Shown here: positions 2-8,265 of the stretch, piece after piece | Position numbering within the stretch: position 1 is the first letter of the stretch | How the letters are laid out: each line of letters opens with the position of its first letter | Source of the DNA: Actinomycetes bacterium | Lineage (GTDB): Bacteria > Actinomycetota > Acidimicrobiia > Acidimicrobiales > RAAP-2 | Direction: 5' to 3' | DNA length: 8,265 nucleotides | NCBI GenBank assembly: GCA_021787255.1 | Contig: JAJYMD010000228.1 | Span: forward strand, 1 to 8,265 | Program-made: the position numbers and the translations under genes | Notes under the pieces: model-generated | Told to the model about the DNA's origin: nothing | Databases searched by the model: none | The model's input: the letters and a program-made list of their open reading frames with translations, nothing else

Positions 2-1735
2 AACGGCGGCTCGTCGTTGACGGGCCTCGAGGCCATCTCGAACGGAGTGAGCGCCTTTCGCAGGCCCGAGTCCTACAACGCGCGAGTGACGCTCGTCGCG
101 ATGAGCTCGGTTCTCGCGTTCTTGGTGTTCGGCGTCACGATGCTCGCCCGTTGGACCCACGCCGTGCCGTACGCCGCCGGCTCGCCGACGGTGCTCTCCC
201 AGGAGGTCCAGGCCGTCGCGGGCCACGGGGCGCTCTTCTACGTGGTGCAAATTGCGACCCTGCTCATCCTCTACACGGGAGGCAATACCAGCTTCAACGG
301 GTTCCCGTTCCTCGCGAGCTTCGTCGCCGCCGACTCCTTCCTCCCGCGCCAGCTCACCCGGCGCGGTCACCGTCTCGCGTTCTCGAACGGCATCATCGTG
401 CTCACCGTCGTCGCCCTGGTGCTGATCGTCGCCTTCCGCGCAAGTGTGGACTCGCTCGTCGCGCTCTACGCGATCGGCGTCTTCACGGGCTTCTGCATGG
501 CCGGGTCGGGGATGGTGAAGCACCACCTCACCCACAAGGGCCGACACTGGCGGCGCAAGGTCGCCGTGAACGGCTTCGCAGCCGTCCTGACTGCGGCAGT
601 CGTCCTGATCTTTGCGTTCGCAAAATTCCTCGAAGGGGCCTGGGTCGTCGTCCTCGTCGGCCCGTTGATGTACTGGGGGCTGATCCGCATGAAGCGTGAG
701 TACGTCGAAGAGGAGCGGCAGCTCCAAGCTGGGGCGGCCGAAGGGGCGGAGGCACCGGTCCTGCGACGCCACGCGGTCGTCGTGCTGGTGGACAGGCTCG
801 ACATGGCCGCCGCGCGGGCGATCCAGTACGCCCGCGCGCTCTCCCCCGACGAGCTACGGGCGGTGCACTTCGACATCGACGACCTCGCGACGCGTGCGCT
901 GGTCGAGGACTGGAGCCGCCTCGGGCTGTCACGCCTGCCGCTCGACATCGTGGAGGTTCCCGACCGCCGCCTGGGGCGCGCCGCTCTCGAGCTCGTGGCC
1001 GACGTCGTCGCGGACGGGGAGACCCAATGCACGCTCCTGCTGCCGCGCAGGGGCTTCACCAACGCGTGGCAGCGGCTCCTTCACGACCGGACCGCCGACA
1101 AGATCGCGACCGTCGTCAGCCAGGTCCCTCACGTGGCGGCGACGATCGTGCCGTTCAATCTCACGGCCAAGTCCAAAGGTGCAGGGTCGCGCTTTCCCGC
1201 TCGGACCGAGGTGACGTCCAGCAGCGAGCTCACGAGCCCAGTCCCAGGAGGAGCACCTCGTGCCGACGAGGAGGCCACGGCGGGCAAGGGGGAGGTGGCC
1301 GAGGCCGAGGAGCGTGCGCCGTCGGCCAAGGGAGCGGGACGATGGAAGGCGCCTGTCGCCCGGGAGCACAAGGTGCTGGAGGGCGCGAGCACCAGGACCG
1401 ACGAGGATCTGGCGCTCGCACGGCGCGCCGCCGCCGCGCTACCCATCGGGCAGGTCGAGTGGCGCCAGCGAGTCGAGGTCGCGGGCCGGATCAAGTCGGT
1501 GCGGGTGCAGCCGAGGGCAGGCACCTCCAACCTGGAGTGCACCCTTGTCGACCGCACCGGCGCCATCCTCCTCGTCTTCCAGGGACGTCGCCGGATCCCC
1601 GGCATCGAACCGGGGGCGCGGCTCGTGGCCGAGGGCATGGTCGGTGCGTGGGGACGCAGGCTCGCGATCTTGAACCCCGACTACGAGCTCGTCGGCGAGC
1701 GGGAGACCGAGGAACCCCCCGCTGCCGAGCCATAG
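2..1735 (+). CDS. APC-superfamily permease with C-terminal OB-fold domain (5'-truncated by window edge)
   Basis: The reading frame is already open at the left edge (codons N-G-G-S-S before the TTG at 17), so the true start lies outside the window. Numbering from that TTG, the first motif (LTGLEAISNGVSAF, with the S-S just before it) is typical of APC permeases of the KimA-like group, which import potassium or amino acids. About six membrane segments follow (roughly 22-44, 72-90, 122-140, 146-163, 184-203, 207-225), with the family stretches FNGFPFLASFVAADSFLPRQ and LYAIGVFTGF. A soluble cytoplasmic region (about 245-385) resembles the tail of these permeases. A low-complexity Ala/Glu/Lys linker (about 386-460) leads to an OB-fold of about 85 residues (475-560: VEVAGRIKSVRVQPRAG, then VDRTGAILLVFQGRRRIPGI). 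In other actinobacteria a similar OB-fold protein is usually encoded by a separate gene near such a permease, so this looks like a fusion. The substrate cannot be read from the sequence. The stop at 1733-1735 lies inside the first 21-bp repeat and within the 3' end of the convergent gene. Confidence 0.88.
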   Translation, partial: NGGSSLTGLEAISNGVSAFRRPESYNARVTLVAMSSVLAFLVFGVTMLARWTHAVPYAAGSPTVLSQEVQAVAGHGALFYVVQIATLLILYTGGNTSFNGFPFLASFVAADSFLPRQLTRRGHRLAFSNGIIVLTVVALVLIVAFRASVDSLVALYAIGVFTGFCMAGSGMVKHHLTHKGRHWRRKVAVNGFAAVLTAAVVLIFAFAKFLEGAWVVVLVGPLMYWGLIRMKREYVEEERQLQAGAAEGAEAPVLRRHAVVVLVDRLDMAAARAIQYARALSPDELRAVHFDIDDLATRALVEDWSRLGLSRLPLDIVEVPDRRLGRAALELVADVVADGETQCTLLLPRRGFTNAWQRLLHDRTADKIATVVSQVPHVAATIVPFNLTAKSKGAGSRFPARTEVTSSSELTSPVPGGAPRADEEATAGKGEVAEAEERAPSAKGAGRWKAPVAREHKVLEGASTRTDEDLALARRAAAALPIGQVEWRQRVEVAGRIKSVRVQPRAGTSNLECTLVDRTGAILLVFQGRRRIPGIEPGARLVAEGMVGAWGRRLAILNPDYELVGERETEEPPAAEP

Positions 1736-3681
1736 CCCACGGATGCCGAGCCATAGCCCACGGATGCCGAGCCATAGCCCACGGATGCCGAGCCATAGCC
1801 CACGGATGCCGAGCCATAGCCCACGGATGCCGAGAGCGTCGACACCACGGCGGGGCTCACGGCGAGCGGCCCTCCGAAGACGTAGCCCCGGGTGCCCTTT
1901 CTAAGGCTGGCGAGGTAGGCGGAGACCGGTGCGGGCAGCGGTCCGTTCGGGTCGACGAGCAGGAGCGGGCCGCTCCGGCCGCTCGTCGCCATGAAGGCCC
2001 CTCCGCCGAGGGCGTCGGGGAAGGCTTCGGAGGTGGCGACCCCGAAGAGCGCGGCACCCGGAAAGAACGTGGAGGCCACCGCGGCCGACGTGCCGAAGAG
2101 TGTCCGTCCGTAGACGGGCTTGGCCGCCGGGTCGGCTCCGGCCGCGGCGAGCGGGCCCCCGATCGCGTAGCGGGTGTCGGAAGGGAAGCGCGCCAGGTAC
2201 GCGGCGGTCTCGGGTGCCTGGGTCGCACCGTCGGTCAGCAAGATGGCGGCGTGCTCCTCGATGGCCGCCGGGACGGCCGACAGGGCGTCGTAGAAGTCGA
2301 GCCCGGTCGCCTCGAAGATCGTGGACGGGTTCCCGAGCTGCTCGGCGACGTCGACGGCGGTCGCGTACTCGTTGGTGCCCGATTCCCGGACGACTCGGTA
2401 GCCGAGGCTTTCCAGGGTCGTGTCGATCTGCGGGCTCAGCGCAAGGTCACCGCCGAGCACGTAGACCGTGGACCCGCTCGGGAGCACCCGCTCGATCTCA
2501 GCCTGCACTCGGGGATCGAGCGCTGAGGAGACCGCAGCGTCCGGGGTGATGAGCAACGGCCCGTCGACCGCTGCCGCCAGCGGCCCTCCGACCAGGGCGT
2601 CGGAGAAGAACTCGGACTGCGCGAGGACGACCGCCTTGGCGGACCCGGGGGCCGGGAACTCCTGCTGCGAGACGGCGATCGAGGTGCCGATGGCGTCCTG
2701 GCCGTAGATCCGGATGACGTTGGACGGCGCGTCGGTCGGTGGGGCGCAGGGCAGGTCGCCGTCGTAGCCTCCGGCCGGGAACTGCGCGAGTGCCACCGGG
2801 CCGCCGGTGAACGAGGTGTCGGCGCAGACGGACTGCGTCCCGGCCTCGTCGTTGGCTCCAGGCATCCACGTGGCCAGTTCGCCGAGCGCGGGGGTTGTCG
2901 GGCCGGTCCCCCCGGTGATCGCCGCCCACTGGTTCGGCGCGGCGTAGAGCCCGACGCTCGGCGCCCCCGCGCTGACGAGGCCGTCCACGAACCCTTGGAG
3001 CACGGCCAAGTTCAACGCCTGGCCGGCAAATCCTGTCTGCCAGGTGTTGGTCGTCTCGACGTCCAGCCACCACGGGTACCCGCTCGGTGTGGCAGGGACG
3101 CTCACCGGCGGGGACTGCGCGTCGACGGCTTGCGCGGCGGCGTGGAGCCAGGCGGCGTCCTGGGTCGCCTGCTGGTCGCCGAATTCCCACGCGCATGCCG
3201 GAGAGTCCTCTCCGGCATGCGCCGGCCCAGCGCTCGTGGAGACGGTCGTGACCGTGCATGTGCCGTACGGGGTCGCGCCCGACGTCGGCCAGTTGGCGAC
3301 GAGTGTCCCGTTGAAGACGTTCCCCGGATCGCTGGTGTTCACGTACACGGATGCCTTGGGCTCCGAACTCGACCCCGTCGACGCGCTCACCGCCCAATAG
3401 AGCTCGCTCTGTGAATAGCTCGGAAACGACGAGGACGGGCCGAGGCAGGGGTTCAGCGTGTCGGGCACGCCGTCGTTCACCCCCACGATTCCGAAGGCTG
3501 GGTCGCTCGGGAACGTCGAGCCGCACTGCGGGAAGGAGATGTCGTTGCCAACCTGGGCGCTGCCCACCTGGGCGGCGCTCTGCGGGGCTGCCGCCGACGA
3601 GGTGGCCGCCCCGAGCGGCAGGATCGCCGCGAGCGTCAACGCGATCGTCGTTCGGGCTCCGAACCCACTCCCCGACTTCAT
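1681..3681 (-). CDS. Secreted GH25-like protein with three cell-wall-binding repeat 2 (CWB2) domains
   Basis: This 666-residue exported protein starts at ATG 3681, chosen because a signal peptide begins there (MKSGSGFGAR, then the hydrophobic TTIALTLAAILPLGAA, with likely cleavage after the Ala-rich stretch near residue 32) and a G-rich stretch lies just upstream. Residues about 45-315 form a domain that opens with NDISFPQCGS and contains YPWWLDVETTNTW (202-214), a D-x-E motif as in the TIM-barrel GH25-like lysozyme families. Six cysteines (53, 79, 142, 163, 286, 312) could form disulfides. Residues about 322-615 hold three CWB2 repeats with the typical RIYGQDAIGTSIAV, FSDALVGGPLAAA, LLIT and VYVLGGDLALS pattern. 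CWB2 domains bind anionic cell-wall polymers in known surface proteins, so a wall-attached role, possibly murein remodelling, is inferred. The tail is five SVGYGSA heptads followed by AAGGSSVSRSPTSS. The last 55 bp overlap the end of the convergent permease gene. Catalysis is unproven; the domain could be a non-catalytic binder. Confidence 0.9.
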   Translation of the reverse strand: MKSGSGFGARTTIALTLAAILPLGAATSSAAAPQSAAQVGSAQVGNDISFPQCGSTFPSDPAFGIVGVNDGVPDTLNPCLGPSSSFPSYSQSELYWAVSASTGSSSEPKASVYVNTSDPGNVFNGTLVANWPTSGATPYGTCTVTTVSTSAGPAHAGEDSPACAWEFGDQQATQDAAWLHAAAQAVDAQSPPVSVPATPSGYPWWLDVETTNTWQTGFAGQALNLAVLQGFVDGLVSAGAPSVGLYAAPNQWAAITGGTGPTTPALGELATWMPGANDEAGTQSVCADTSFTGGPVALAQFPAGGYDGDLPCAPPTDAPSNVIRIYGQDAIGTSIAVSQQEFPAPGSAKAVVLAQSEFFSDALVGGPLAAAVDGPLLITPDAAVSSALDPRVQAEIERVLPSGSTVYVLGGDLALSPQIDTTLESLGYRVVRESGTNEYATAVDVAEQLGNPSTIFEATGLDFYDALSAVPAAIEEHAAILLTDGATQAPETAAYLARFPSDTRYAIGGPLAAAGADPAAKPVYGRTLFGTSAAVASTFFPGAALFGVATSEAFPDALGGGAFMATSGRSGPLLLVDPNGPLPAPVSAYLASLRKGTRGYVFGGPLAVSPAVVSTLSASVGYGSASVGYGSASVGYGSASVGYGSASVGYGSAAGGSSVSRSPTSS
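1723..1834. repeat. 21-bp tandem repeat, 5 perfect copies plus 7 bp
   Basis: Units start at 1723, 1744, 1765, 1786 and 1807 (TGCCGAGCC...CACGGA), with a 7-bp partial copy at 1828-1834. All five full copies are identical, which points to recent expansion by slippage or to active maintenance. On the minus strand the unit is in frame with the convergent cell-wall protein and encodes SVGYGSA five times at its C-terminus. On the plus strand every copy contains GAGCCATAG; the first copy supplies the last two codons and the stop of the permease. Copy-number change would lengthen the secreted protein without touching the permease product. Confidence 0.97.
3191..3222. repeat. Perfect 15-bp inverted repeat with 2-nt spacer, inside a coding region
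   Basis: Left arm 3191-3205 (GCGCATGCCGGAGAG) and right arm 3208-3222 (CTCTCCGGCATGCGC) are exact reverse complements separated by TC. It lies inside the cell-wall protein gene and encodes about residues 154-164 (AHAGEDSPACA). In mRNA it could fold into a strong stem; in DNA it could extrude or bind a dimeric protein. No function can be assigned. Confidence 0.9.
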
Positions 3682-3875
3682 GCATGCCCCCGTGCTGGGT
3701 CGGAAGGAACGCCGCTGGGCCGACCGCCGTTCGTGGCTCGGTCGTCGAGCTGCGACGGCGAGACGTGACGACCGAGGCGGTCCACCGGGCGAGTGTAGCG
3801 GCGAGCCCTGCCCTGCTTCGGGGACCACAGCACCGAGCGACGCTGGTGCGCGGCCCTTGCGCCCCAGGCGATGCC

Positions 3876-4586: not shown

Positions 4587-4720
4587 GCGCGATCGACGCT
4601 ACCGGATCGGTGACCGCCTCTGCTGGCGACCCCGGGTCTTGGCGTCGAGTCGATGAGACCGCTCGGTTGTCGGCCCCGTGCGCTGGCCGGTGCGCGAGTA
4701 CCGTTTCTCCCCGTCGAGAC

Positions 4721-4733
4721 GAGGAGGAGGAGG
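4721..4733 (+). promoter_or_regulatory. Ribosome binding site deciding the GTG start of the S53 peptidase
   Basis: The purine run GAGGAGGAGGAGG ends 8 nt before the GTG at 4742, an ideal spacing. The nearer ATG at 4737 is in another frame and stops after eight codons (MGCVPPSR). The site therefore selects GTG 4742 over the longer upstream extension of the frame. Confidence 0.8.
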
Positions 4734-4741
4734 ATCATGGG

Positions 4742-6196
4742 GTGCGTGCCGCCGTCTCGGTGAGCCTGCTCTCTGCGGTCGCGCTCTCGGCCGCACTGAC
4801 GATCGCGTGGACGGCGGGCTCGGGAGATCGGGTGGGCCATCTTCGCTCCCAGCAGCTCGGCACCCGCGAATCGCCCGCATCCGCGTACCTGTCCGAGTCG
4901 CAGTGCCTCGCCACAGCGTCGATCCGCCTGCCTTGCTACGACCCTGCCCAGATCGAGACTGCGTACGACGAGCGACCGCTGTTCGACGAGGGCGTCGACG
5001 GCCGTGGCCAGACGATCGTCGTCGTGGACTCTTTCGGCTCTCCAACCATCCGCAGAGACCTCGCCACGTTCGACGCCCAATTCCACCTGCCCACACCGCC
5101 GCGCCTGCAGATCATCCAGCCCGCAGGCGCCGTCCCCCCCTACGATCCTGGGACAGCGACAATGACCGGATGGGCGGGGGAGACGACCCTCGACGTCGAA
5201 TGGTCGCATGCCGTTGCGCCCGGCGCGGACATCCTCCTCGTCGAGACTCCCGTCTCCGAGACCGAAGGGACAGTTGGTTTCCCTCAGATCGAGGCCGCGG
5301 AGCTCTATGTCGTCCGCCACCGGCTCGGCGACGTCATCACCCAGAGCTTCGGCGCGAACGAGCGGACCTTCTCCTCGCCGAGCCGGCTCGAGGCGCTGCG
5401 CAGCGCCTTCGTCGCCGCGGCAGCCGCAGGTGTCACGGTCGTTGCATCGACCGGCGACACAGGGGTCAGCGACTACACGACAGCGACAGGCAAGGACTTC
5501 TCGACGACGCGGACGGTCACATGGCCCGCGAGCGATCCGCTGGTCACGGCAGTCGGGGGGACGAAGCTCAGCCTGGACGCTTCCGGGCACCGGACCTCGC
5601 CGGACCAGGTGTGGAACGATACGTACGATCCCGTGGCGAACGACTTCGTGTTCGGCACACCCCGGCCCCATCCGGACGCGAGCGGCGGGGGGCTCTCGTC
5701 GATCTTCTCGAGACCTTCGTACCAGCAGGGGGTCGCGCAGGTGGTGGGAGATCACCGCGGCATCCCCGACATCTCGATGAGCGCCGCGTGCTCAGGCCTG
5801 GTGGACACCTACCAGAGCTTCTCCGGGCCGACACCCCCGGGCTGGTACTACGTCTGCGGGACGAGCGAGGCCGCGCCGCTCTTCGCGGGAATCGTCGCGC
5901 TCGCAGACCAGGAGGCGCATCACGGTCTCGGTCTCATCAATCCTGCGCTCTACGCGATGGCACGAGCCCACGACCCCGGGATCGTTCCGGTGACGAAGGG
6001 TGACAACACGGTGTCGTTCGACGAGCGCGGTAGGCAGCACACGGTCGTCGGGTACCGCGCGTCGGCGGGTTACAACCTCGCCTCCGGCCTCGGCACCGTC
6101 GACGCCGCGCGCTTCGTGCCGGAGCTGGTGCGCACGGTCGCGGCGGTCGGCTCGGCGGTCACCTACCAAGTGCTGTCGGCACCCAGGAGGTCGTGA
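4742..6196 (+). CDS. Secreted S53 family (sedolisin) serine-carboxyl peptidase lacking a propeptide domain
   Basis: This 484-residue endopeptidase starts at GTG 4742, behind a strong ribosome binding site. The N-terminus is a signal peptide or anchor (RAAVSVSLLSAVALSAALTI). S53 signatures are complete: Glu147 and Asp151 in GETTLDVE, the oxyanion Asp239 in ASTGDTG, and nucleophile Ser375 in GTSEAAPLFAG. Probable calcium ligands are Asp343 (IPDIS) and the SGLGTVDA segment (448-455, Asp454). Family knowledge: these enzymes act outside the cell, usually at acid pH, as Ser-Glu-Asp triad peptidases. The catalytic domain begins near CYDPAQIETAYD (65-76), so only about 35 residues separate it from the signal peptide. 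The roughly 180-residue activation prodomain of kumamolisin-type enzymes is absent. The stop at 6194-6196 is 19 bp from the end of the convergent selenoprotein gene; no clear terminator is visible between them. Confidence 0.93.
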   Translation: MRAAVSVSLLSAVALSAALTIAWTAGSGDRVGHLRSQQLGTRESPASAYLSESQCLATASIRLPCYDPAQIETAYDERPLFDEGVDGRGQTIVVVDSFGSPTIRRDLATFDAQFHLPTPPRLQIIQPAGAVPPYDPGTATMTGWAGETTLDVEWSHAVAPGADILLVETPVSETEGTVGFPQIEAAELYVVRHRLGDVITQSFGANERTFSSPSRLEALRSAFVAAAAAGVTVVASTGDTGVSDYTTATGKDFSTTRTVTWPASDPLVTAVGGTKLSLDASGHRTSPDQVWNDTYDPVANDFVFGTPRPHPDASGGGLSSIFSRPSYQQGVAQVVGDHRGIPDISMSAACSGLVDTYQSFSGPTPPGWYYVCGTSEAAPLFAGIVALADQEAHHGLGLINPALYAMARAHDPGIVPVTKGDNTVSFDERGRQHTVVGYRASAGYNLASGLGTVDAARFVPELVRTVAAVGSAVTYQVLSAPRRS

Positions 6197-6215: not shown

Positions 6216-7802
6216 TCAGCCCTCGGCGGTCTCCCTCGAGCGGTCCCCCCGCAGGCTCAGCTGCTCTTCGATCCGCTGGGCGTCGGTTTGCCAGTGCCAA
6301 CCGCCGGTCGGCACGGCCCTTTCGAGAGGCGTGCCGGGGCCGAGCAGCTCGCGGACCGCGGCCTCGAGCTCGTGCGGCGTGGTCGCTCCGACGGCGGTCA
6401 CCGTGCCGTCGGCATCCACCAGCACGTTCGTGGGAACGCCGCGGATGCCGAGCCGCTCGACCAGCTCGCCGGCTTCGTCGACGAGCACCGTGCCCTTGAT
6501 GCCCCACAGCTCGCAGAATGTGCGCGCTTCGGCAAACGCTCGGGTGCCCTCCCAGACGTCCACCAAGATGATCTCCAGACCAGACCGGTCCGCACGCCGG
6601 CGCAGGTCCTCGATGACCGGCGCCTCGGCGTTGCACGGGCCTCACCAGCTGGCGAAGACGTTGATGACGTACTTGCGCCCCGCCCACGCCCTCAGGTCGC
6701 GCAGCTCCTCGGTCCACAGGTCCGGCAACGCCAGCGCGGGCATCTTCTTGCCCACCATCGGATGAGGTGCCTGCGCGAACGGCGACGAAGGGGCCCCGCC
6801 CAGCAGGTCCTCGACGAGGGTGAGCGTCCCGGAGCCGGCGTTGGCGACGAGGATGCGGCCAGGATGGAGCGGGTCTTCGCAGACGCCCCCGGGGGCGGCG
6901 CCGACGGGGATCCGCGACCACTCGACGCCGTCGAGCCCCATCACGCTCACGGTGCCGTCGCCGCGGTTGCCGACGTAGAGCCGGTCGTCACGCGAGCCCA
7001 TCGTGAGCCCGACGGGCGCGTTCGGGACCTCCATCTCCGCGACCTTCTCGAGCGTGCGGCCGTCGACGCGGGTGATGGTGCTGGCGAGCGAGTCTGCGAT
7101 GAAGACGTCCCCGCTCTGCTTGTGGACGTCTACCGCGCACGGCCCGGCGGCCAGCGGGACGTGGGCGACGACCTCGAGGGTCTTGTCGTCCACGACGCTC
7201 AGCGACGACGCCAAGAAGTTCACGCAGTAGACGCGTCCAGCTCGCGGGTCCGCGACGACCGCACCTGCGCCGAGCTCCGCGTCGACGACCCCGATCCGTT
7301 CGAGGCGGTCGAGGTCGATGACGCTCATCGTGGAGCCTGCGGCGTCGCCGGAGTAGAGGCGACGTCCTTCCACGTCGATGCACAAACCCGACGGGTAGCT
7401 GCCGACCGGCACCGTGGCAACCACGCGGCTCGTCCGCGTGTCGATGACCGAGATCTGGTCCGAGCGCGCGTCGGCGGTGAAGACCCTCCCGGTCCGCTCG
7501 TCGATGACGATGTCGATGGGCTCGTCGCCGACGGGGATCGTCTCGACGACCCTCAGCTCGTCGGGGTCGACCACCGTGACGGCGTTCGACCTCGAGCACG
7601 CCACGTAGATGCGGCCGCTCGCACGGCGGACGATCACCCCTTCAGGGTCGAGCCCGACCTCCACTTCTCCGATGAGCCGGAAGGCACGCCCCTCGGCGGT
7701 CGGGTCGACCCAGCAGCTCGGACCGCCTCCGATCTCGGTGAGCGGCTCCCGGGGCGGTTCGTCGCTGGCGTGCAAGATCGGCTCGTGCGGAATGTCCGGC
7801 AT
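6216..7802 (-). CDS. Selenoprotein: seven-bladed YVTN beta-propeller fused to TlpA/thioredoxin-like domain (UGA-encoded Sec387)
   Basis: Read through one in-frame TGA (6644-6642), the gene encodes 528 residues. The ATG at 7802 is chosen because a strong ribosome binding site lies 5 nt upstream. Residues about 45-330 contain seven YVTN-like blades (IYVACSRSNAVTVVD, VFTADARSDQISVID, LYSGDAAGSTMSVID, VYCVNFLASSLSVVD, VFIADSLASTITRVD, LYVGNRGDGTVSVMG, ILVANAGSGTLTLVE). Residues about 348-490 are a TlpA/ResA-like thioredoxin fold: YVINVFASW, then U387-G-P-C390, NAEAPVIEDL, and the cis-proline loop GIRGVPTNVLVD (Pro457). The UGA falls exactly where Cys is normal in WCGPC. A thiol-disulfide or peroxide redox role is inferred; the partner is unknown, and the propeller may bind it. 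No signal peptide or membrane segment is visible, so it is probably cytoplasmic, unlike most TlpA proteins. Without Sec insertion the product would stop at residue 386, before the active site. tRNA-Sec lies divergently upstream. The alternative, a Cys-to-stop mutation, is less likely given the context. Confidence 0.9.
6594..6631 (-). promoter_or_regulatory. SECIS-like hairpin downstream of the UGA
   Basis: Hand folding of the mRNA from +11 to +48 after the UGA gives ACGCC/GGCGU (5 bp), a GA bulge on the 5' side, GGCGC/GCGCC (5 bp), a C-U mismatch, GGUC/GACC (4 bp) and a six-base loop, AUCGAG. The loop is 28-33 nt after the UGA, within the range known for bacterial SECIS elements, which recruit SelB with Sec-tRNA. 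The loop does not begin with G, so it matches the classical E. coli consensus only in part. In GC-rich coding DNA a stem can also arise by chance. Confidence 0.6.
6642..6644 (-). other. UGA selenocysteine codon (Sec387)
   Basis: TGA on the minus strand sits between TGG (Trp386) and GGC-CCG-TGC (Gly-Pro-Cys). This makes the redox motif UxxC. The upstream and downstream parts are in the same frame and belong to one thioredoxin domain, so the codon is read through rather than being a gene end. Confidence 0.88.
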
Positions 7803-7920: not shown

Positions 7921-8084
7921 TCGCGCAAGACGGCGGGTCGGAAGCGGCGCGCAACGCGGCGCGGTCGGAAGCGTCGCGCAAGACGACGGGTCGGAAGCGT
8001 CGCGCAAGACGACGCGTCGGAAGCGGCGCGCAACGCGGCGCGGTCGGAAGCGTCGCGCAAGACGACGCGTCGGAAGCGTCGCGC
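7921..8084. repeat. Higher-order tandem repeat of 26/27-bp units (A-B-B-A-B-B')
   Basis: Six units begin with GTCGGAAGCG at 7937, 7964, 7990, 8016, 8043 and 8069, preceded by a 16-bp tail of a B-type unit (7921-7936). The A units (7937, 8016) are 27 bp and identical, with GCGCGCAACGCGGCGCG as the 3' part. The B units (7964, 7990, 8043) are 26 bp with TCGCGCAAGACGACG. The last unit breaks off after 16 bp. The A-B-B block repeats with a 79-bp period. B units ending in C contain a short dyad, GCGTCG-CGCAAGA-CGACGC (7997-8015 and 8050-8068). The array fills much of the 362-bp space between the selenoprotein start and the tRNA. The remainder (7823-7920, 8085-8164) shows no gene; arginine-rich open frames across the array are repeat artefacts. 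Confidence 0.92.
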
Positions 8085-8164: not shown

Positions 8165-8257
8165 GGAGGTGTGCAGGTGCCTGGTGGGCCTCCCCGCCTT
8201 CAAAGCGGGTGGGACGGGTGATCCCCGTCCGGCGGGTTCGATTCCCGTCCACCTCCG
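8165..8257 (+). tRNA. selC: tRNA-Sec (anticodon TCA)
   Basis: The gene is 93 nt without an encoded CCA. Acceptor arms GGAGGTG (8165-8171) and CACCTCC (8250-8256) pair perfectly, with discriminator G8257. The D arm (8175-8191) has about six pairs, a bulged G8179 and a four-base TGGT loop. The anticodon stem CCCGC/GCGGG (8193-8197, 8205-8209) closes the loop CTTCAAA, with anticodon TCA at 8200-8202. The variable arm is long: GGACGGG/CCCGTCC (8212-8218, 8224-8230), 7 bp. The T loop is TTCGATT (8237-8243). TCA reads UGA, and the long variable and D stems fit tRNA-Sec, which is charged with Ser and converted to Sec. Acceptor plus T stem total 13 pairs, as in bacterial tRNA-Sec, but divide most naturally as 7+6 (G8231-C8249) rather than 8+5, because U8172 faces C8249. 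A weak -10-like TACTCT (8136-8141) lies upstream without a good -35. Confidence 0.92.
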
Positions 8258-8265
8258 CGGACGCC

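What the first reader, a model, noticed from the sequence alone, without database searches (positions are those of the whole stretch)
6216..7802. Apparently undescribed selenoprotein architecture: seven-bladed beta-propeller plus Sec-containing thioredoxin domain
A frame-preserving TGA replaces the first Cys of WCGPC in a TlpA-like domain. Both flanks are in one frame, and the downstream 141 residues keep the thioredoxin fold, including the cis-Pro loop GVPTN. Thioredoxin-like selenoproteins are known, and propeller-thioredoxin proteins with Cys exist (NHLRC2-like, in the opposite domain order). I do not know of a Sec form with an N-terminal YVTN propeller. Standard gene callers would split it into a 386-residue propeller protein and a small orphan fragment, hiding the active site.
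Basis: partly seen in the sequence, partly recalled or inferred. Interest (0 to 1): 0.95.

Follow-up and report, generated by a model that had tools for sequence, protein, structure and literature searches.

The report
Propeller–thioredoxin selenoprotein beside tRNA-Sec
A bacterial gene that gene callers cut in two at an in-frame UGA codon is predicted to encode a selenocysteine protein joining a propeller-shaped domain to a thioredoxin domain; the same UGA stands in all 24 genomes where the gene was found, so it is likely a new selenoprotein family that the protein databases searched list almost only in halves.

Summary
A 528-residue frame is interrupted once, by TGA at residue 387, in FASW-UGPC of a TlpA/Redoxin-type thioredoxin domain behind a YVTN propeller (seven blades in an AlphaFold2 model, pLDDT 88). 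A tRNA-Sec gene begins 363 bases upstream. The genome carries selA, selB, selD and a formate dehydrogenase gene with UGA at the known Sec site. In 24 of 24 genomes with the gene the codon is TGA; no Cys form was seen among listed homologues. Codons after the UGA are under purifying selection as strong as before it. Of 54 close database entries 53 stop at FASW; of 120 listed C-terminal entries 119 begin after the UGA. The gene lies beside a Sec-machinery gene in 16 of 24 genomes and near a UGA-containing fdhA in two more. Two constrained hairpins follow the UGA; the second has a GGU loop like the formate dehydrogenase hairpin, but 55–58 nt from the UGA, outside the published 16–37 nt rule. The architecture is not in a 2026 table of 119 prokaryotic selenoprotein families. 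Selenocysteine is strongly inferred, not measured. Function (likely a cytosolic selenol/thiol reductase, perhaps in selenium assimilation) is inferred.

The parts
6216..7802 (-). Selenoprotein gene: 528 codons including Sec UGA at codon 387, then terminal TGA
   Evidence: translation with TGA=U; start matches the aligned starts of relatives
6807..7682 (-). Seven-bladed YVTN/YncE-type beta-propeller, residues 41-332
6342..6755 (-). TlpA/Redoxin-type thioredoxin domain, residues 350-487
   Evidence: Pfam Redoxin, AhpC-TSA, Thioredoxin; secondary structure of the model
6642..6644 (-). In-frame TGA, predicted selenocysteine codon, residue 387 (U of WUGPC)
   Evidence: TGA in 24 of 24 genomes
6633..6644 (-). 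UGPC active-site motif, residues 387-390 (Sec387, resolving Cys390)
   Evidence: alignments A2 and A5
6426..6440 (-). GVPTN, cis-proline loop of the thioredoxin fold, residues 455-459
   Evidence: alignment A2
6600..6623 (-). Hairpin H1, first downstream hairpin (8 pairs, 6-nt loop, loop begins 27 nt after the UGA)
6576..6592 (-). Hairpin H2, candidate SelB-binding SECIS hairpin, loop GGUCU at 6586-6582, loop begins 55 nt after the UGA
   Evidence: same GGUCU loop as in the formate dehydrogenase hairpin
8165..8258 (+). tRNA-Sec gene (anticodon TCA), divergent from the selenoprotein gene
   Evidence: ARAGORN 8165-8258; Rfam RF01852 8165-8256, 70.4 bits, gathering 47

Best explanation
The gene is predicted to be read through its in-frame UGA as selenocysteine, giving one 528-residue protein in which a seven-bladed propeller (predicted fold) is followed by a thioredoxin domain with a UGPC active site. 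Shown by sequence: the frame, the codon in 24 genomes, selection on the codons after it, the tRNA-Sec gene, and selA, selB, selD and a second UGA-containing selenoprotein gene in the same genome. Inferred, mechanism of decoding: SelB carrying Sec-tRNA-Sec binds hairpin H2, whose GGU loop matches that of the formate dehydrogenase hairpin; because H2 lies 55-58 nt from the UGA, the intervening hairpin H1 (24 nt) would fold up and bring it into the usual range (about 31 nt). Inferred, mechanism of action: a cytosolic selenol/thiol reductase. The propeller face, with conserved Arg71, Arg113 and Arg280 and Cys69, Cys193 and Cys222, would hold an anionic or disulfide-bonded substrate; Sec387 would attack it and Cys390 would resolve the selenenylsulfide, with electrons from a thioredoxin-type system. 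From its place near selenium genes, the pathway I would test first is selenium assimilation (reduction or delivery of selenium to SelD); I give that last step about 0.3. The stated confidence is for the selenoprotein and its two-domain build, not for the pathway.
For: UGA: TGA in 24 of 24 genomes (window, G001-G012, G019; G224, G279; G524, G538, G578, G633, G661, G665, G675; G984, outside the class). Frame open for 104 or more codons after it where the contig allows. Selection: pooled pN/pS of 13 copies against the window is 0.12 over codons +1 to +30 and 0.26 over +1 to +110, against 0.31 in the propeller; over codons +1 to +23 of 14 rows one ATG/GTG/TTG occurs, so a separate downstream gene does not explain it there. 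Databases: 53 of 54 close entries, the window's own included, end at FASW; 119 of 120 listed C-terminal hits start after the UGA. Machinery in the same genome: tRNA-Sec in the window; selA 367.3 bits; selB 218.6 bits (cut-off 242.25) and near full length by tblastn; selD 316.7 bits; FdhA with UGA at NRTUHAPS. Co-occurrence: within the family, selA in 14 of 14 genomes with the gene (partial in G006) and 1 of 23 without. Linkage: beside tRNA-Sec or selA in 16 of 24 genomes; 1.2-1.3 kb from a UGA-containing fdhA, with selA beyond, in 2 more. SECIS: on 23 rows H1 has 7.70 of 8 and H2 5.57 of 6 pairs on average; a codon-resampling null that keeps relatedness reached H1 in 18 and H2 in 5 of 5000 draws, both together in 0. 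Model: pLDDT 88.4, pTM 0.88. No N-terminal hydrophobic stretch in 10 of 10 aligned rows.
Against: No protein or selenium measurement exists. H2 breaks the 16-37 nt spacing rule and H1 lacks a G in the first two loop positions in the window, so neither alone fits the published bacterial SECIS model (PMC13188914, section 5 passages). H1 and H2 were chosen on the same sequences that were tested; covariation is modest (two pairs with double changes). Single-sequence folding of the region is not clearly better than shuffles (z +0.13 to -1.71 in 5 rows; -1.09 for a shorter stretch). 40 of the 120 database C-terminal fragments are called from a start at codon +5 to +22, so start codons there do occur in other members, though all lie after Cys390. 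One entry, P0126, has Trp at the site. In 4 of 24 genomes no selA, selB, selD or tRNA-Sec lies within the 6-9.5 kb searched. 15 of 47 searched relatives without the gene have selA, complete or partial, so the gene is not needed for selenium use. Arg113 is His in G984. No assay points to a substrate.
Confidence: 0.85

Rival explanations
1. Same selenoprotein, but a general client of the machinery: a cytosolic disulfide or peroxide reductase whose gene sits by selenium genes only because it depends on them. (Rival to the pathway step only.)
For: Many uncharacterised UxxC selenoproteins are taken to be redox enzymes (PMC13188914). G279, G633, G675 and G984 carry the gene without selA, selB, selD or tRNA-Sec within the 6-9.5 kb searched. 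Domain hits are Redoxin, AhpC-TSA and ResA-like.
Against: Several different arrangements keep it next to tRNA-Sec, selA or fdhA, which favours a selenium-related role but does not prove it.
Confidence: 0.5
2. UGA is a true stop: a 386-residue propeller protein and a separate downstream thioredoxin fragment are made.
For: This is how databases hold it: 53 of 54 close propeller entries and 119 of 120 listed C-terminal entries; in 40 of those 120 a start is called at codon +5 to +22.
Against: The fragment would lack the active site; codons directly after the UGA are constrained and in 14 rows hold one possible start; the codon is TGA, never TAA or TAG, in 24 of 24; the thioredoxin strand-helix motif would be cut in its centre.
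Confidence: 0.02
3. UGA is read as Trp or Cys by a changed genetic code or by leaky readthrough.
For: One homologue, P0126, is recorded with Trp at the site.
Against: UGA also ends genes in the same window (4610-6196 and 6216-7802), and the genome has the whole Sec pathway. P0126 lies on a 1508-base contig; its codon was not seen, and it may come from a caller that reads TGA as Trp.
Confidence: 0.02
4. Pseudogene or assembly error.
For: The window's genome is a fragmented assembly of 58.5% estimated completeness.
Against: 23 other genomes carry the same codon with open, constrained flanks.
Confidence: 0.01

Closest known systems
TlpA/ResA/Redoxin-type thioredoxin proteins, including Sec forms ('Redoxin family protein' PF08534 UxxC; 'UGC-containing TlpA'; 'Prx-like thiol:disulfide oxidoreductase' UxxC) listed in PMC13188914
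   Same: Thioredoxin fold, UxxC or CxxC at the helix start, cis-Pro loop; Sec forms known
   Different: The table names no propeller with them; here a seven-bladed propeller precedes the domain, no signal peptide is apparent, and no Cys form of the whole protein was seen among listed homologues
NHLRC2 / SOQ1 family (Trx-like plus NHL propeller)
   Same: Thioredoxin domain joined to a beta-propeller; function unknown
   Different: Reverse domain order, six blades, CC(I/V)NC motif and Cys, against seven blades and WUGPC here (PMC6107167, passages)
YVTN/YncE seven-bladed propellers (PDB 1l0q, 3vgz; hydrazine synthase beta 5c2v)
   Same: Fold and repeat sequence
   Different: Recorded without a thioredoxin domain; here Cys69, Cys193 and Cys222 are present in 32 of 32 rows that cover them
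NF041054 WAxxUGC_long, ResA-like selenoprotein
   Same: ResA-like, Sec-containing by its name
   Different: 53.5 bits against a cut-off of 300; motif here is FASWUGPC
Formate dehydrogenase alpha selenoprotein of the same genomes
   Same: UGA at a Sec site; hairpin with GGUCU loop in 4 of 4 genomes examined
   Different: Loop begins 18 nt after the UGA there, 55 nt here

Membership tests
Bacterial selenoprotein | In-frame UGA at a redox-active site, conserved in relatives | tested here: met
   24 of 24 genomes
Bacterial selenoprotein | Genome encodes SelA, SelB, SelD and tRNA-Sec | tested here: met
   selB scores 218.6 bits, under the 242.25 cut-off, but aligns over nearly its whole length
Bacterial selenoprotein | Cys-containing homologues at the Sec position | tested here: met
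   For the thioredoxin domain only (P0115, WCGPC); none for the whole protein among 120 listed of 186 and 120 listed of 190 hits
Bacterial selenoprotein | SECIS meeting the published model (loop 3-9 nt, G in first two loop positions, stem 4-16 bp, 16-37 nt from UGA) | tested here: inconclusive
   H2 meets loop, G and stem rules but lies 55-58 nt away; H1 meets spacing but not the G rule in the window
Bacterial selenoprotein | Selenium or Sec shown in the protein | not testable with these tools
   needs 75Se labelling or mass spectrometry
TlpA/ResA/Redoxin-type thioredoxin domain | Profile match above curated cut-off | tested here: met
   PF08534 59.8 bits, cut-off 26.6; PF00578 47.2, cut-off 26
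ResA (NF002854 subfamily) | Score above the subfamily cut-off | tested here: not met
   63.1 bits, cut-off 170
ResA / TlpA exported redox protein | N-terminal signal or anchor | tested here: not met
   hydropathy only: N-terminal maximum 0.89 or lower in 10 of 10 rows
YVTN seven-bladed propeller | Repeat profile and 7 x 4 strands | tested here: met
   TIGR02276 122 bits, cut-off 27.85; 28 strands in the model
NHLRC2/SOQ1 | Trx before propeller, six NHL blades, CC(I/V)NC | tested here: not met
   order, blade number and motif all differ
NF041054 WAxxUGC_long | Score above cut-off and WAxxUGC motif | tested here: not met
   53.5 of 300 bits
'Redoxin family protein' selenoprotein of PMC13188914 Table 1 | Identity to the representative accession | not testable with these tools
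   representative sequence not held; whether it is a fragment of this family is open

The most novel reading that the evidence does not exclude
A selenoprotein family that exists only as Sec and works for the Sec pathway itself: a propeller–selenothioredoxin encoded by tRNA-Sec and the sel genes that reduces or hands selenium to SelD. Its UGA is decoded by a two-hairpin SECIS in which a spacer hairpin folds away 24 nt and carries a formate-dehydrogenase-type GGU hairpin, 55-58 nt downstream, into SelB range.
Probability: 0.25. Interest if true: 0.88.

Novelty: new variant of a known kind. Interest (0 to 1): 0.72.

Why it matters
It adds a likely selenoprotein family with a domain architecture not in the 2026 table of 119 families, seen here only as Sec and lying beside a Sec-machinery gene in 16 of 24 genomes. 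Automatic annotation removes its active site in 53 of 54 close entries and 119 of 120 listed C-terminal entries. It offers a test case for two open points: which protein delivers reduced selenium to SelD, and how far from a UGA a SelB-binding hairpin can lie if another hairpin fills the gap. It also suggests a search recipe: families of proteins that all stop at the same residue.

Tried and rejected
Plus-strand reading of 6216-7802: spurious.

H1 as the only SECIS: spacing fits, but the apical loop AUCGAG lacks the required G and the upper stem is changed in L163 and weak in L215. H2 alone: loop fits, spacing does not. I therefore propose both together, untested. In 7 of 23 rows the minimum-energy fold of H2 closes one more pair and leaves a 3-nt loop.

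First codon-resampling test drew codons independently for each row and ignored relatedness; I rely on the second one. The synonymous-conservation scan is supportive, not unique: propeller windows near codons -231 and -150 score about as high.

Class, order and phylum searches were samples (395, 397 and 396 genomes, partly overlapping, three candidates scored per genome, E at most 1e-30, 1e-30 and 1e-25): 2, 9 (the same 2 among them) and 1 full-length members, all with TGA; 1 further order genome and 4 phylum genomes matched in the propeller only, and no thioredoxin motif was seen in the open frame of those loci. Counts of loci exclude L009, which is the same contig as L081.

Linkage could not be judged in G524 and G665 (contig ends). 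G023 has selA, selB, selD and tRNA-Sec but no copy was found; its contig ends at or just upstream of selA, where the gene lies in G003 and G019.

Position of the propeller Cys and Arg residues relative to Sec387 was not measured: the tool gives no coordinates; that they share one face is inferred from blade topology (recalled). The pdb_via list is filled by the propeller; it tests nothing about the thioredoxin part, and NHLRC2 is not among its 50 rows.

Literature: PMC13188914, section 7 parts 1-2 of 3 and passages of sections 5-7; PMC9312934, PMC1794560, PMC2398784, PMC6107167 and PMC8538045, passages; PMC12013277, term search without hits; all others, search listing only.

Full report

The codon is conserved. 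Related genomes gave 23 further full or nearly full copies: 12 of 12 other genomes of the genus and one of another genus of the family, G224 and G279, seven more in the order and G984, of the phylum but outside the class. In 24 of 24, window included, the codon is TGA. L009, found, is the same contig as L081 and is not counted twice. No copy of the whole protein with Cys was seen: of 54 close propeller entries (P0003-P0056, the window's own included) 53 end exactly at FASW, the other (P0038) being a partial record; of 120 listed hits to the C-terminal part (190 found) 119 begin after the UGA. The exception, P0126, has Trp at the site on a 1508-base contig; its DNA was not seen.

The frame is used beyond the UGA. 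For 13 other copies against the window, pooled pN/pS is 0.12 for codons +1 to +30 and 0.26 for +1 to +110, compared with 0.33 for the 40 codons before the UGA and 0.31 for the propeller. In codons +1 to +23 of 14 rows there is one possible start codon (a GTG at +9), so an independent downstream gene does not explain the constraint there. Against this, 40 of the 120 database fragments are called from a start at codon +5 to +22, so starts do occur in other members, at varying places and always after Cys390.

The genome decodes UGA as Sec. The window's genome (58.5% complete) holds selB (218.6 bits, below the 242-bit cut-off, yet near full length by tblastn to another selB), selA (367.3 bits), selD (316.7 bits) and a formate dehydrogenase alpha gene (617.1 bits, below the 666-bit cut-off) with UGA at NRTUHAPS, which fits the UHxP motif of Sec formate dehydrogenases (PMC13188914 table). 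Of 37 family genomes, selA occurs in 14 of 14 with the gene (partial in G006; G000's copy of the gene is the window's) and in 1 of 23 without (an 18-bit hit in G018 not counted; Fisher 2.5e-9, not corrected for relatedness). Over all 61 genomes it is 14 of 14 and 15 of 47, so selenium users without this gene are common. In the family, tRNA-Sec scores over the cut-off in G001-G012, G019 and G023 only; the held G000 lacks this end of the contig.

Neighbourhood. In the window and in 10 further genomes the gene lies beside tRNA-Sec. In G003, G004 and G019 it is divergent from selA-selB-selD-tRNA-Sec, about 0.12-0.15 kb from selA. In G224 and G578 it follows selA-selB-selD-tRNA-Sec on the same strand. 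That is 16 of 24. In G538 and G661 a UGA-containing fdhA lies 1.2-1.3 kb away on the other strand, with selA beyond. In G279, G633, G675 and G984 no selA, selB, selD or tRNA-Sec was found in the 6-9.5 kb searched on either side; in G524 and G665 the contig is too short to tell.

SECIS. A 2026 review gives the bacterial rules: loop 3-9 nt, G in the first two loop positions, stem 4-16 bp, 16-37 nt from UGA, and says that some genes break them (PMC13188914, section 5 passages). Two hairpins follow the UGA. H1 (6623-6600) has its loop 27 nt after the UGA but no G at the loop start. H2 (6592-6576) has the loop GGUCU, as in the formate dehydrogenase hairpins of four genomes examined (loop at 18 nt), but its loop begins 55 nt after the UGA. 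GGU stands at that place in 23 of 23 rows and in G984, where one codon is inserted and the stem is of different sequence (58 nt). Mean pairing is 7.70 of 8 (H1) and 5.57 of 6 (H2). When synonymous codons are redrawn column by column, keeping relatedness, H1 is reached in 18 of 5000 draws, H2 in 5, both in none. These helices were picked on the same data. Covariation is modest and single-sequence folding energies are unremarkable. My reading: with H1 folded, 24 of the 55 nt are taken up and H2 comes within about 31 nt. This is inference.

How it may work. Cys69, Cys193 and Cys222 are present in 32 of 32 rows that cover them, Cys30 in 30 of 31; Arg71, Arg113 and Arg280 likewise in 32 of 32, though G984, not among those rows, has His for Arg113. 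A Sec-thioredoxin next to an Arg- and thiol-rich face suggests a selenol-dependent reductase. Thioredoxin can form selenium adducts and supports selenoprotein synthesis in E. coli (PMC8538045, abstract and passages), and the donor to SelD is still described as unsettled (PMC13188914). Together with the linkage this makes selenium assimilation the pathway I would test first (about 0.3); a general redox client is the main rival.

What is known. The review's table of 119 families and subfamilies lists Redoxin, TlpA-like, Prx-like and thioredoxin selenoproteins but none named with a propeller; the word propeller does not occur in its text or in that of PMC9312934, PMC1794560, PMC2398784 or PMC12013277. 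Word searches gave no description in the papers listed. Most subscription papers and all preprints are outside that library. NHLRC2 differs in order, blade number and motif.

Verdict. Selenocysteine is strongly inferred, the SECIS geometry is plausible and testable, and the function is open.

Noticed in passing
7921-8084: Tandem repeat (26-base unit, 6.2 copies; 79-base higher unit 96% matched) between the selenoprotein gene and tRNA-Sec.
   Followed up: no
1723-1834: Perfect 21-base tandem repeat (5.3 copies) where the permease-like frame (17-1735) and the CWB2-domain protein (1681-3828) overlap, giving a SVGYGSA repeat near the end of the latter.
   Followed up: no
4610-6196: Subtilase-family (PF00082) protein convergent with the selenoprotein gene; a similar protein sits at the same place in G001 (L186:914-2419).
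   Followed up: partly
P0048, compare L162/L187: The recorded protein start looks mis-called inside tRNA-Sec: its first residues (MGPPAFKAGGTGDPR) match the frame read across the tRNA-Sec gene that precedes the selenoprotein gene in G224.
   Followed up: partly
L169 (G279) and L181 (G019): selD of G279 has UGA at HGAGUACK; a second selD copy of G019 is reported with one in-frame TGA, not inspected further.
   Followed up: partly
G000:C29: The held assembly lacks the window beyond position 6196, that is, the whole selenoprotein gene and tRNA-Sec; genome searches of G000 therefore miss both.
   Followed up: partly
P0057: A propeller resembling the G984 member whose recorded translation looks frame-shifted around the Sec site and returns to the thioredoxin frame.
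   Followed up: no
G040, G042, G043, G045, G046, G048-G050, G052, G053, G055, G059, G060: Order-level genomes with selA over the cut-off but without this gene; their selenoproteins were not examined.
   Followed up: no
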